A stretch of 64,000 nucleotides of DNA from a bacterium (GTDB lineage: Bacteria > Eisenbacteria > RBG-16-71-46 > CAIMUX01), in assembly GCA_030431975.1 (NCBI GenBank), contig JAUIHP010000012.1:62001-126000 (forward strand), given 5' to 3'. The notes below the pieces were generated by a model, which made no database searches, was not told the DNA's origin, and saw nothing but the letters and a program-made list of their open reading frames with translations. The position numbers and the translations under genes are program-made. This document shows, in pieces, positions 34,680 through 38,883 of the stretch (position 1 is its first letter; each line of letters opens with the position of its first letter).

Positions 34680-37589
34680 CTACCAACGGTCCGGGTATCC
34701 CGGCAGATCCGCGCGCAGGTGCGGCCAACGTCGGGCCTTTTCCTCCTCCGTCATCCGGTCCTGAATCTCGGCCGCCTTCCACACGAGCCGGGAAAACTCC
34801 GTCACATCCGGATCCTCGTTGAGACGACCGGCCATTTCGTTCGCGACGGGAACGAGGTCCTGCAGGTCACGGTTCTGCGCCCAGAACGAGTGCCGAAGAA
34901 TCTCCGCGTACTCGGCGACGACGGCGGCCAGTTGAAGCCTCGGCGCCTGCGTCTCGACGGACCGGACCACCTGGTGCATCCGAACGTCCTGCTCCAGTTC
35001 CGTCACCTTCGGCCTCTGTCCCGCCTGCGTCGCCGGCTTCGCGTAGCGGAAACGAACCGTGGCCAGCGTGTCGTCGACATGAACGTCATCCTGTAGCCGG
35101 ACTTCGTAGAGAGCGACCACCGTGTGCCCCGATCCGATCTCTCCTGCATCGATGTCATCGTTGCGGAAGTCGCGATCGGCCACGTCGCGGTTCTCGAATC
35201 CGATCAGCCGGTACCCGTCGACCTTCCGAGGATCGAACTCGACCTGGATCTTGGCGTCCTGCCCCACGACTTCGAGAGTGCCGGTCAGTTCTCGGCGGAA
35301 GATCCGGTCCGCTTCGTCGAGGCGATCGACGTAGTAGTACGCACCGTCACCCTGATCCGCCAGCTGTTCCATGAGGACGTCGTTGTAGTTGCCCATTCCG
35401 AACCCGACCGTGGTCAGGTAGACGCCCTTGTCCGCTTCGCTCCGAACGACTTCGAGAATCGCATTCGGTCCGGTTCGGCCGACGTTGGCCACTCCGTCCG
35501 AACAGAGGATGATGCGGTTGTTGGCTTCCGGATCGAACATCTCCCGGGCCATTTCATAGCCCAGGCGCAAGCCGTCTTCCGCGTTCGTGCTTCCCGCCGA
35601 CTGAAGACGCCCGATGCTTTCCAGAATGCGGTCCTTTTTCGCGACCTGCGTTCCGCGAAGCAGCACTTCGGCCCGACTTCCGTAGACCACCAGGCTGACG
35701 CGGTCGGACGGTCGCAGTCCGTCGACCAGTTGCTCGAGTGAGGTACGAACCAATCCCAGTCGATCCTCGCGACTCATCGAACCCGAGATGTCGACGACAA
35801 AGGTCAGGTTCGCCGGCTTGCGCTCTGCATCCGGAACCGTCCGAGCTTTGAGTCCAACCCGCAACAGGTGGAAACCGTCGCCGTAGGGCGCTTCGGCGCC
35901 GTCCACGAAGATGCGGAAGTCCGGTCCGTGAAACTCCGGGTAACCCGGATCGAAGAAGTTGACGAACTCTTCGACGCGGACGGAAGCCGGTTCGGGCAGG
36001 TAACCATCCGTGACGTAGCGACGGGCCACCGTGTAGGAGCCGTTGTCGACATCGACGGCGAACGTGCTGAAGGGATCCGTGTCTGCAAAGGTCAGTGGGT
36101 TCGAACCGTAGTCTTGGTAGATCACGAGATCGTAAGGTTCGTTCGACTCCCCAGGAGTCTGAAGACCCAGGAACTGGGGCTTATCCCGAGACGTGGACTG
36201 AGGCACGCTCCCGGAAGGCTCCGCCATGACTCGTCGGCTCGAATCGTCGAACTTCTGCTCAGAATTCGCGGGCGCGGAAGGGTTCGCCTCGCCGGCACGA
36301 CCTCCCCGGAAGAGAACCTCTTCGTCCTTCGCTACGACACCGGCTTTCAACCCGATCGCCTCGGCGACTTCGTCGACGGGCAGAGGTTCCCGCGATGCAG
36401 GCCGCCGAACTGTCGTCGACTTCCCCGTTGGCGCAATGCGTTCCTTTTCCGCGGTGACGGCAATCTCGCTCATCCATCCGACCGATTTGGGCTCCATGGC
36501 AAAGCTGAGGCTCGGTCCTTTGCCCGAACTCACTTCAACGTTCTTGGCGATCTCCATTGAGAAACCCATCGAACTGGCCCGCACGTCGTAGACACCCGGC
36601 GGGACGTTCACGACCTTGAATCGGCCGTCTTCGAGGGCTACTGCCCCCAATTGCGTCCCGACAAGCATGACGTTCGCAAAGGGAATGGGGTTGCCAAGAG
36701 TGTCCGTTACGACGCCTTCAATGGTCCCAAGCTCGGCAAGAAGCCGTGAATCAGAATCCGAGAATCTGGCAGCTTCGGTTTCGGCCGGACTCGTCTCCGA
36801 ATCGGCGGTCCGTCTTTGGCGCCCAGATTCCCCGCCTACCGTCGAACCGACCTGGGGCCGAGTGTCAGGCAACTCACTCGTAGAGCGCGTCTCCTCGGAA
36901 CGCTGTGACTGAGTCTGAGCCTTGAATGGCGGCGCGGCACTGGTCGGTGGCGGCGTCGGCTCGGACTCCGGCACGGGAGCGACCACCGACTCCGGGCGGA
37001 CTTCCTTTGACTCGACGGCCTTACCCAATCCCATCGAAACCGATTTGTCGTCGGAGCCGCTCATCGCATCATCCGCATCCCCGGGGTCGCCGGGCCCCTC
37101 GTTCTCCGAGACGTCGGCACCGGACACGGTCGGGGTCGGGGCCGGGGCCGGAATCGGGAGGTTTCGATTGTCCTCGCTCTCGTCGGACTCCGCCTCCATG
37201 AGCTCGCCGGTGAATTGTCCTTCGGACTTCAGGTCAAGACTGGAGTCCGCGTCCTTCTTTGCGGGTTGCGGAGTCACCTCTTCCGTTCCTGCAGAACTGA
37301 TTGCACGGTCGCGTATCCGATCAAGGTCCGCCTCGTGCTCCGCCGCGCGGTCCCAAATGACCACCGCAAAAACAACCGTCGCCATCGCCCCAACCGCCAT
37401 CGGAGTCAGGAACCGTCGACCGGTGAACCAATGGCTGAATGGGGACTCCGAGCGTCCCGCGGCATCAACGGCGGAATCTCCGGCGCCATGTCCACTGGCC
37501 GATGTCGTTTGCTGTCGAACGCGCTCCCAAACCCGCTGCCGCTCTCCCTCGGTCATGCGCGGTCGCTGTGTGTCGATGCGATCTTTCAT
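34680..37589 (-). CDS. Membrane-anchored von Willebrand A (YfbK-like) protein
   Basis: 969 aa. N-terminal ~60 cytoplasmic residues (EGERQRVWERVRQQ), one helix FLTPMAVGAMATVVFAVVIW, a ~190-residue Pro/Ser/Glu linker, a carboxypeptidase-regulatory-like beta domain (IEGVVTDTLGNPIPFANVML ... VPPGVYDVRASSMGF), a vWF_A N-terminal domain (DPFSTFAVDVDNGSYTVARR), a VWA domain with MIDAS DISGSMS and GSTNAEDGL, and a DUF3520-type C-terminal domain. Fits an envelope protein binding ligands through metal. Its start overlaps the ECF sigma gene stop, and the cytoplasmic N-terminus plus single helix is the topology of an anti-sigma factor, so it may regulate that sigma (inference). Confidence 0.88.
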   Translation of the reverse strand: MKDRIDTQRPRMTEGERQRVWERVRQQTTSASGHGAGDSAVDAAGRSESPFSHWFTGRRFLTPMAVGAMATVVFAVVIWDRAAEHEADLDRIRDRAISSAGTEEVTPQPAKKDADSSLDLKSEGQFTGELMEAESDESEDNRNLPIPAPAPTPTVSGADVSENEGPGDPGDADDAMSGSDDKSVSMGLGKAVESKEVRPESVVAPVPESEPTPPPTSAAPPFKAQTQSQRSEETRSTSELPDTRPQVGSTVGGESGRQRRTADSETSPAETEAARFSDSDSRLLAELGTIEGVVTDTLGNPIPFANVMLVGTQLGAVALEDGRFKVVNVPPGVYDVRASSMGFSMEIAKNVEVSSGKGPSLSFAMEPKSVGWMSEIAVTAEKERIAPTGKSTTVRRPASREPLPVDEVAEAIGLKAGVVAKDEEVLFRGGRAGEANPSAPANSEQKFDDSSRRVMAEPSGSVPQSTSRDKPQFLGLQTPGESNEPYDLVIYQDYGSNPLTFADTDPFSTFAVDVDNGSYTVARRYVTDGYLPEPASVRVEEFVNFFDPGYPEFHGPDFRIFVDGAEAPYGDGFHLLRVGLKARTVPDAERKPANLTFVVDISGSMSREDRLGLVRTSLEQLVDGLRPSDRVSLVVYGSRAEVLLRGTQVAKKDRILESIGRLQSAGSTNAEDGLRLGYEMAREMFDPEANNRIILCSDGVANVGRTGPNAILEVVRSEADKGVYLTTVGFGMGNYNDVLMEQLADQGDGAYYYVDRLDEADRIFRRELTGTLEVVGQDAKIQVEFDPRKVDGYRLIGFENRDVADRDFRNDDIDAGEIGSGHTVVALYEVRLQDDVHVDDTLATVRFRYAKPATQAGQRPKVTELEQDVRMHQVVRSVETQAPRLQLAAVVAEYAEILRHSFWAQNRDLQDLVPVANEMAGRLNEDPDVTEFSRLVWKAAEIQDRMTEEEKARRWPHLRADLPGYPDRW

Positions 37590-38170
37590 AGTTCCAGTCC
37601 CTCCAGGCCTTGGGCCTCGACGCGGGGGGCCATGTCACCGAGGGCTTCTCTCATCTTCTGCTTGGCTCGGACGTGGTGGACACGGACGGTGCTCTCTTTG
37701 ATCTCCAACTGCTGAGCGATCTCTGCAAAGCTCAGTTCCTCCCACTCGTGAAGCAGAAGGACGGCCCGTTGGTTCTTGGAAAGTCGTGCCAGGGCGTCGT
37801 GAAGATTCCGATCCTCACTTTCGAATCGCACGCGTTCCGTCTGCGGCTCGACGATAGCGGTGCGTTCGGTCAGTCCCACCGTGCGCTTGATCTTGAGAAG
37901 CGCGGATCGTTTCCAGTCGATGGCCAGTCGCATCGCGATGGTTCGCAGCCACGATGCAAGCGAGGCCTCTCCCCGGAATCCGTCGAGGCGTTGGAAGGCT
38001 CGGACGTAGGTGTCCTGAAGCAGATCCAAAGCCGCTTCCCGATCCCCGAGCTGATAACAGAGGAGTGAGAAGAGCCGGTCGCAGGTGGCATCGTAGATGG
38101 CTTGCCAAGCCTCTTCGTCACCTTGCGCTGCTTGTCGCGCCAGCTCTCGATCCCGTGTTGCGTCGCTCAT
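37586..38170 (-). CDS. ECF-type RNA polymerase sigma factor
   Basis: 194 aa. Region 2 (residues ~20-95): DRLFSLLCYQLGDREAALDLLQDTYVRAFQRLDGF and ASWLRTIAMRLAIDWKR. Region 4 (~130-182): LSKNQRAVLLLHEWEELSFAEIAQQLEIKESTVRVHHVRAKQKMRE, the HTH that reads the -35. No region 1 or 3. Overlaps the VWA gene by 4 bases, so the two are translationally coupled. The 286 bases upstream (38171-38456) hold a perfect CGGCCAG/CTGGCCG hairpin near 38308-38325 but no obvious promoter that I can name. Confidence 0.9.
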   Translation of the reverse strand: MSDATRDRELARQAAQGDEEAWQAIYDATCDRLFSLLCYQLGDREAALDLLQDTYVRAFQRLDGFRGEASLASWLRTIAMRLAIDWKRSALLKIKRTVGLTERTAIVEPQTERVRFESEDRNLHDALARLSKNQRAVLLLHEWEELSFAEIAQQLEIKESTVRVHHVRAKQKMREALGDMAPRVEAQGLEGLEL

Positions 38171-38456: not shown

Positions 38457-38528
38457 TTACCAACCAGCTCGTCCGTAGCTCAATAGCACCAGAATCCCTG
38501 CGATGATGGCTCCGCCAGCTGCAAACAT
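38457..38528 (-). CDS. Tiny single-helix membrane peptide, copy A
   Basis: 23 aa, far below usual gene-calling limits. Starts MFAAGGAIIAGI, continues LVLLS and ends YGRAGW then TAA. One hydrophobic segment covers about residues 3-17; the only charged residue is Arg near the C-terminus. Ribosome site AAAGGGGGC 5 to 8 bases before ATG. Compared with copies B and C the first seven residues, G11, I12 and the last six are invariant, while seven positions within the helix change only between small or hydrophobic residues (I/L, A/V, L/M, V/M, L/I, L/V, S/A). That pattern indicates selection on a membrane peptide. Function unknown. Confidence 0.8.
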   Translation of the reverse strand: MFAAGGAIIAGILVLLSYGRAGW

Positions 38529-38580
38529 TCCAGCCCCCTTTCCTAGTTGCGAACCCGATCTTTCCTGAGTGAAGTCTGTC

Positions 38581-38652
38581 TTACCAGCCTGCGCGGCCGT
38601 AAGCGACGATCATCATGATTCCAACGATAAGGGCTCCACCTGCTGCGAACAT
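38581..38652 (-). CDS. Tiny single-helix membrane peptide, copy B
   Basis: 23 aa: MFAAGGALIVGI, then MMIVA, ending YGRAGW and TAA. AGGAGG lies seven bases before ATG (AGGAGGAACTCAA), an ideal ribosome site. The peptide is identical to copy C although four bases of the 72 differ (three synonymous codons, GCC/GCT, CTT/CTC, GCT/GCC, and TAA versus TAG). Similarity stops sharply outside the reading frame, so this is a maintained gene, not a DNA repeat. Copy A starts 52 bases downstream. Comparable classes are KdpF/CydX-like accessory peptides or type I toxins, but there is no sequence match to any of these that I recognise. Confidence 0.85.
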   Translation of the reverse strand: MFAAGGALIVGIMMIVAYGRAGW

Positions 38653-38737
38653 TTGAGTTCCTCCTGACTGTTGAGTTTCGATTGCTTCCTGAATTCCACC
38701 GAGGCCGGACGGGCCGCTGTCCAGCCGACCGTTCCGA

Positions 38738-38809
38738 CTACCAGCCTGCGCGGCCGTAGGCGACGATCATCATGATTCCAACGATGAGAGCTCCACCTGC
38801 TGCGAACAT
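38738..38809 (-). CDS. Tiny single-helix membrane peptide, copy C
   Basis: 23 aa, same peptide as copy B, stop TAG. AGGAGG six bases before ATG (AGGAGGTAGGAA). First gene of the array; copy B starts 85 bases downstream. About 60 bases upstream lies a sigma-54-like element, giving a leader of roughly 50 bases that contains a small GGGC/GCCC hairpin. The separate strong ribosome site at each copy suggests all three peptides are made in high amounts. Predicted inner-membrane location with the YGRAGW end at one face. Confidence 0.85.
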   Translation of the reverse strand: MFAAGGALIVGIMMIVAYGRAGW

Positions 38810-38868
38810 TTCCTACCTCCTGGTTTGGGTTGTTTCCTGTGGGCTTGCGCCCTACGCCCTTTGTATTA

Positions 38869-38883
38869 GTAATCGTTGTGCCA
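38869..38883 (-). promoter_or_regulatory. Sigma-54-like promoter for the peptide array
   Basis: On the minus strand CTGGCAC-AACGA-TTACT matches the -24/-12 consensus YTGGCAC-N5-TTGCW with correct spacing; only the G of the -12 GC is changed to A. TAATAC just downstream could alternatively be a sigma-70 -10 box with a poor -35. No RpoN activator gene is in the window. Confidence 0.45.

What the first reader, a model, noticed from the sequence alone, without database searches (positions are those of the whole stretch)
38457..38809. Three tandem 23-codon genes for a new single-helix membrane peptide family
On the minus strand three ORFs of 72 bases each start MFAAGGA, have a hydrophobic middle and end YGRAGW. 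Each has its own ribosome site (AGGAGG for B and C, AAAGGGGGC for A). Copies B and C encode the same peptide yet differ at four bases: three synonymous codons and TAA versus TAG. The flanks do not align. Copy A changes seven residues, all within the helix and all between small or hydrophobic residues. That is selection on a peptide. I know of no described family with this sequence; functions to weigh include a membrane-complex accessory subunit, a stress peptide or a type I toxin array.
Basis: partly seen in the sequence, partly recalled or inferred. Interest (0 to 1): 0.88.

Follow-up and report, generated by a model that had tools for sequence, protein, structure and literature searches.

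The report
Tiny peptides sharing a lipoprotein tag
Three tiny genes in an uncultured Eisenbacteria bacterium belong to a family found across that phylum, whose 16-40-residue peptides end in the same short tag (G-R/K-A-G-W) as a set of larger surface lipoproteins; in many of these genomes both are preceded by the same kind of switch (sigma-54), which points to an undescribed envelope system.

Summary
In detail: three 72-base minus-strand ORFs, each with its own ribosome site; B and C differ only synonymously. They are real genes. Relatives occur in 37 of 47 Eisenbacteriota genomes (about 50 ORFs), often in tandem or at conserved positions. The helix is not the constant part: transmembrane-like here, amphipathic and acidic in another family. 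The constant part is the C-terminus, G[RK]AGW-stop. About 33 larger proteins in 20 genomes end in the same motif; nearly all are lipoproteins with a ZU5-fold domain (AlphaFold/Foldseek). The tag tends to co-vary within a genome (GKGGW in both in G025; YRAGW in both in G028). Copy C, most class I relatives and many tagged lipoproteins have predicted sigma-54 promoters upstream; related peptide genes lie beside sigma-54 activators or kinases. Best reading: tag-only membrane peptides co-expressed with tagged lipoproteins, recognised by one unidentified envelope partner (inferred). Type I toxin, leader-peptide and pheromone readings are less likely. In 33 of 35 tagged proteins the tag follows HF|S, the autocleavage site of animal ZU5 domains, so release of a roughly ten-residue tag peptide is possible but untested.

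The parts
38738..38809 (-). copy C, 23-aa peptide MFAAGGALIVGIMMIVAYGRAGW, first gene of the array
   Evidence: tag motif, SD, synonymous-only difference from B
38581..38652 (-). copy B, same peptide as C
38457..38528 (-). copy A, MFAAGGAIIAGILVLLSYGRAGW
38868..38883 (-). predicted sigma-54 promoter TGGCAC-AACGA-TTACT, 74 nt upstream of the ATG of C (inferred to drive C-B-A)
   Evidence: score 22.0 of 25, shuffle p 0.006; similar position to relatives
38815..38821 (-). ribosome site AGGAGGT of C
38660..38665 (-). ribosome site AGGAGG of B
38533..38541 (-). ribosome site AAAGGGGGC of A
37586..38170 (-). downstream neighbour: ECF-type sigma factor (not shown to belong to the system)
   Evidence: Sigma70_r2, r4_2

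Best explanation
A, B and C are translated tiny membrane peptides made of a variable helix plus a conserved C-terminal tag G[RK]AGW. The same tag ends a set of ZU5-domain lipoproteins, and in many genomes both groups have predicted sigma-54 promoters, with activator, Ser/Thr kinase or histidine kinase genes beside several of the peptides (this much is shown by sequence). Inferred mechanism: when the activator fires, cells make tagged lipoproteins together with tag-only peptides. One envelope partner, not yet identified, recognises the tag. The peptides anchor or titrate that partner at the inner membrane, or present the tag as a ligand. The logic resembles PEP-CTERM systems, but the tag and cargo differ. 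Confidence by step: about 0.85 that the peptides are real and share a functional tag with the lipoproteins; about 0.75 for joint sigma-54 control in class I; about 0.35 for recognition of both by one partner.
For: Reading frame conserved and synonymous changes favoured. Family in 37 of 47 genomes, with members found by position alone as well as by motif. Tag shared with about 33 larger proteins of ZU5-lipoprotein type; own genome has GRAGW on C33 and TRAGW on C4. Within-genome co-variation: GKGGW in the peptide and both matching proteins of G025, YRAGW in both of G028, R/R in f1/f2/f4/f6 and K/K in f7. Sigma-54 sites upstream of copy C, G001, G002, G003, G005 and the f7 peptides, and upstream of lipoproteins (the eight order members p <= 0.003; upstream vs in-gene Wilcoxon p 1e-5). 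RpoN found in 45 of 47 genomes. Neighbouring GAF/sigma-54 activator and Ser/Thr kinase at four related loci, and a TPR/sigma-54 activator at G001.
Against: No tag-binding partner was identified. Many f10 genomes have the peptide but no ZU5 lipoprotein found with my profile. f10, f9, f5 and f11 peptides lack a convincing sigma-54 site and sit in a structured RNA element instead. f3 and f8 lack the peptides. Tag identity follows lineage, so part of the co-variation is shared ancestry; G038 (K vs R) and one of three G040 proteins disagree. Some f10/f7 lipoproteins have weak sigma-54 sites, and G000 copy D and G012b score poorly. Nothing was measured.
Confidence: 0.5

Rival explanations
1. Small regulatory subunits of adjacent membrane signalling proteins (histidine kinase, HD-GYP protein, kinase), like MgrB- or CydX-type small proteins; the tag is the docking residue set and its presence on lipoproteins is secondary.
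For: Related loci often sit beside a signalling gene: dCache-HAMP histidine kinase (f7), HD-GYP membrane protein (f5, f6, f9, f10, f11), Ser/Thr kinase or sigma-54 activator (f1, f2, f4, f6).
Against: The neighbour type changes between families while the tag stays; window copies A-C have no such neighbour except an ECF sigma factor; the tag on about 33 lipoproteins is unexplained.
Confidence: 0.2
2. Type I toxin array: short hydrophobic peptides held silent by mRNA structure or an antisense RNA.
For: Size, hydrophobicity, tandem copies; class II relatives have a 5'-3' closing helix and partly pairable SD, as in hok/AapA-type mRNAs.
Against: Phylum-wide conservation, often at fixed loci; conserved tag shared with lipoproteins; predicted A-C transcript not more structured than shuffles; no sigma-70-like antisense promoter; f10 peptides short and acidic.
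Confidence: 0.1
3. Leader or arrest peptides (SecM-like RAG motif) that regulate a downstream gene.
For: C-terminal RAG resembles RAGP of SecM (recalled, not tested); class II elements precede one conserved gene; class I D and G005 copies are followed by possible terminators (sequence reading).
Against: R to K and A to G tolerated; motif internal in G028 and in lipoprotein C47; motif repeated three times in G015; three tandem copies here; tag also ends ~200-aa lipoproteins; downstream genes differ.
Confidence: 0.07
4. Secreted or processed peptide signal sensed by TPR proteins (RRNPP-like).
For: TPR domains in the G001 activator and, weakly, in the neighbouring Ser/Thr kinase; tandem genes; tripled motif GGHAWW in G015.
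Against: Tag conserved across a phylum, unlike strain-specific pheromones; no exporter or peptidase seen beside the genes; f10/f9 loci lack TPR neighbours among the genes looked at.
Confidence: 0.1

Closest known systems
PEP-CTERM/EpsH (exosortase) protein-sorting system (PMC1569441)
   Same: Short C-terminal signature on exported proteins, sigma-54 motif about 70 nt before single-gene units, NtrC-like activator, membrane histidine kinase and TPR protein
   Different: Tag is G[RK]AGW without PEP motif, without a following membrane helix and basic cluster; cargo is lipoproteins; tag-only micropeptides; exosortase not searched for
ZU5 / Nup98 autoproteolytic domains (PIDD, CARD8, NLRP1; bacterial ZU5 in PMC3482391; PMC3210808)
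   Same: The lipoprotein domain has the ZU5 fold and a near-invariant HFS before the last strand, the cleavage motif of PIDD/Nup98
   Different: Cleavage untested; a very short C-terminal fragment (mostly about 10 aa) rather than UPA/CARD or a toxin; applies to the lipoproteins, not to the tiny peptides
Type I toxins (Ibs, Ldr, Hok, AapA)
   Same: 15-30-aa hydrophobic peptides, tandem copies
   Different: Conserved tag, predicted sigma-54 control, phylum-wide conservation, no antisense evidence

Membership tests
PEP-CTERM-like sorting system | C-terminal PEP motif + membrane helix + basic residues | tested here: not met
   tags are G[RK]AGW at the very C-terminus of ZU5 domains
PEP-CTERM-like sorting system | exosortase/EpsH in the genome | not tested
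PEP-CTERM-like sorting system | sigma-54 promoter upstream of substrate genes | tested here: met
   (most class I peptides and many lipoproteins; not class II peptides); by sequence only
Type I toxin | small hydrophobic peptide | tested here: met
   (class I); f10 amphipathic
Type I toxin | antisense RNA antitoxin | tested here: inconclusive
   no sigma-70-like site near A-C; no RNA data
Type I toxin | toxicity on expression | not testable with these tools
   needs experiment
ZU5 domain (lipoprotein partners) | ZU5 fold | tested here: met
   model pLDDT > 90 over most of the domain, best PDB match ankyrin-B ZU5, E 4.9e-5; Pfam ZU5 only E 0.043, below cut-off
ZU5 autoprotease (lipoprotein partners) | HFS cleavage motif before the last strand | tested here: met
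   33 of 35 tagged proteins; also present in untagged ZU5 lipoproteins
ZU5 autoprotease (lipoprotein partners) | self-cleavage at F|S | not testable with these tools
   needs protein
Arrest/leader peptide | arrest motif at fixed distance from stop and a regulated downstream gene | tested here: not met
   motif internal in G028 and C47, tripled in G015, downstream genes differ
RRNPP-type peptide signal | export and processing genes linked to a TPR receptor | tested here: inconclusive
   TPR proteins beside some members; no exporter or peptidase noticed in the neighbourhoods listed

The most novel reading that the evidence does not exclude
The ZU5 lipoproteins cleave themselves at HF|S and can release a short, usually ten-residue peptide S-x-Y-x-x-G-[RK]-A-G-W at the cell surface or in the periplasm. 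The tiny genes encode a membrane-tethered, ready-made version of the same ligand, and a sigma-54/kinase module controls both: a bacterial counterpart of tethered-agonist (GAIN/ZU5) signalling.
Probability: 0.13. Interest if true: 0.95.

Novelty: new variant of a known kind. Interest (0 to 1): 0.8.

Why it matters
It would give an uncultured phylum its own C-terminal tag system, with the smallest possible members (helix plus tag), and a concrete handle (G[RK]AGW) to fish out the partner protein. It shows that 16-25-residue genes, probably missed by standard annotation, can be near-core genes of a phylum. If the HF|S motif is active, it would link bacterial ZU5 lipoproteins to the autocleaving ZU5 domains of animal innate immunity.

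Tried and rejected
Rfam: nothing above threshold in the window region or in five class II loci. Pfam, NCBIfam and PHROGs with the peptides: no significant match. PDB sequences: no significant match. Spread beyond Eisenbacteria: genome scan of 84,980 species with the [YF]GRAGW pattern gave only chance hits outside the phylum; viral contigs none; a one-genome phylum had none; GKAGW-type peptides in other phyla were not scanned. Shared activator site upstream of peptides and lipoproteins: none found; a TGTAAG-N7-CTTACA palindrome occurs only before two f7 peptides, with a similar one before a third. Twenty further hits of the tag pattern were read: in-frame tails are mostly R-rich chance frames and none is a lipoprotein. 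Tagged larger proteins matching GGHAWW in about 27% of f9 genome G015: none. The tag as an RNA element rather than a peptide: rejected because codons vary freely (CGN and AGG for Arg).

Full report
Observation. The three ORFs are as described. The window lies in a 6.2-Mb, 59-contig genome of Candidatus Eisenbacteria: the named records that match relatives carry that name, and the phylum search holds 47 genomes. Genomes are called G000 (own) to G046, families f1 (own) to f11, as the tool numbers them.

A family, not an array. A protein search found a fourth paralogue D on contig C41 (MIIGGAVLAGLLMLVNYGRAGW) and one in G005 (MFLQIDVTILLGLLMAMYFGRAGW). Patterns then found members through the phylum. 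In family f10 a test by position was possible: relatives of the upstream gene carry a short ORF at the same intergenic site in almost every genome, for example MDLLIEIVELFGKAGW and MELLVQIIQLFGRAGW. At the same site f9 has MPKLIYTIIAALLSYITVSGGQSNWW and MPKVIHSILAALLTYTISGGHAWWANGGHAWWMSGGHAWW, f5 MEFLQLVVLATLLKWITVNSRGHW, f6 MIALWIAAIYVVLNGGRAGW and f11 MSFINLDLLELVGVLLIGFYRAGWGPGGP. Family f7 has tandem pairs such as MAALALILFVVTFAGGGGGKAGW/MAALALILIVISFAGGGGGKAGW. In all I count about 50 ORFs in 37 of 47 genomes. They were not found in f3 (five genomes) and f8 (one), nor in G006, G031, G041 and G043 (75-82% complete). Nine ORF pairs show 26 synonymous and 15 nonsynonymous changes where 27% synonymous is expected (p = 1e-6).

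What is conserved. The helix varies from transmembrane-like (Kyte-Doolittle 2.5-3.3 over 11 residues) to short and amphipathic with Asp/Glu (f10). The C-terminus is nearly fixed: G[RK]AGW, rarely GRASW, GKGGW, TKAGW, and more divergent in f9 and f5. Arg codons CGN and AGG both occur, so the constraint is on the peptide.

Two genomic settings. Class I (f1, f2, f4, f7 and a second f6 copy) stands alone or in tandem. A predicted sigma-54 promoter lies 74-123 nt before the first ORF (f7 TGGCACGRCGGCTGCTC-type sites with shuffle p about 0; copy C TGGCACAACGATTACT, p 0.006; G001, G002, G003, G005 p 0.004-0.016). D and G012b score poorly. RpoN was found in 45 of 47 genomes. At D, G003, G005 and G012b the neighbours are a GAF/sigma-54 activator with Fis-type HTH and a Ser/Thr kinase; G001 has a TPR/sigma-54 activator (domains were scanned with Pfam for D and G001, read from sequence for the others). 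In f7 the pair lies beside Lon in six genomes, with a membrane sensor gene on the other side where the contig allows; the one scanned is a dCache-HAMP histidine kinase. Class II (f5, f6, f9, f10, f11) lies after an unnamed gene and, where read, before an HD-GYP membrane gene, without a convincing sigma-54 site. It is enclosed by a covarying helix GAGACCGACATC/GATGTCGGTCTC: 94% of cells paired, 6 of 12 pairs with changes on both sides; for the whole structure 0 of 500 shuffles did as well. A second, weaker pairing covers part of the SD (74-85% of cells).

The tag is on lipoproteins. A search for the tag alone and reading of the frames showed larger proteins of 140-320 aa ending ...HFSRYxxGRAGW or ...HFSKYSAGKAGW, nearly all with signal peptide and lipobox. 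Own genome: C33 (187 aa...EHFSRYRPGRAGW), C4 (...HFSRWKTRAGW), C47 (tag internal); C41 and C57 are untagged relatives. AlphaFold gives a confident beta-sandwich (mean pLDDT 82.6, above 90 over most of the domain), and Foldseek's best PDB matches are ankyrin ZU5 domains (E 4.9e-5). Their upstream regions hold sigma-54-like sites (C33 TGGCACGGGTCTTGCC; upstream versus in-gene scores p = 1e-5; C4 TGGCATGAGGGTTGCC). An untagged ZU5 lipoprotein lies next to the peptide at D and in G003.

Co-variation. Tag type agrees between peptide and larger protein in nearly all of the genomes that have both, including GKGGW in G025 and YRAGW in G028. G038 (K vs R) and one G040 protein disagree. Shared ancestry explains part of this, and the search pattern required Ala, so other GKGGW proteins could have been missed.

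Mechanism. Shown by sequence: peptide-level selection, common tag, common predicted promoter type in class I and lipoproteins. Inferred: one envelope partner recognises the tag; the micropeptides anchor, titrate or mimic tagged lipoproteins. The design resembles PEP-CTERM (PMC1569441: sigma-54 motif on average 71 nt before the start, PrsR activator, PrsK kinase, PrsT TPR protein), but its defining tag is absent, so membership is not claimed. In 33 of 35 tagged proteins the tag follows HF|S, commonly ten residues from the end. HFS is the autocleavage motif of PIDD and Nup98, and SF/S that of CARD8/NLRP1, just before a long strand at the end of the domain (PMC3210808). Bacterial ZU5 domains are proposed autopeptidases (PMC3482391). 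Self-release of a tag peptide is therefore possible, though untagged relatives also keep HFS, so the motif may be structural.

Limits. Most genomes here are drafts; members were partly found by the motif itself; no expression or biochemical data exist; the tag-binding partner is unknown; the GKAGW form was not scanned outside the phylum; counts of members are from my own reading of the hits.

Noticed in passing
L095-L120 (class II sites, e.g. L095:2327-2544 +): Undescribed structured RNA of about 220 nt around the peptide ORF in f5/f6/f9/f10/f11: covarying closing helix, two GCGAAGCG repeats, invariant AGGAGGTG ribosome site partly pairable with an upstream ACCCACC. No Rfam match in the five loci searched.
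   Followed up: partly
L120 (G015), ORF at about 2056-2178 +: Peptide in which the C-terminal motif GGHAWW is repeated three times.
   Followed up: no
L208, L209, L211 (f7): Palindrome TGTAAG-N7-CTTACA upstream of the sigma-54 site of two f7 peptide pairs, with a similar one in a third; candidate activator site.
   Followed up: partly
L378 (G000:C47): ZU5 lipoprotein with the GRAGW tag followed by a 24-residue charged tail.
   Followed up: no
L012:9256-9777 -: Untagged ZU5 lipoprotein next to peptide D; an equivalent pair occurs in G003. The peptide might supply the tag in trans.
   Followed up: no
window 34680-37589: 969-aa protein with carboxypeptidase-regulatory, vWF-A and YfbK_C domains directly downstream of the ECF sigma factor.
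   Followed up: no
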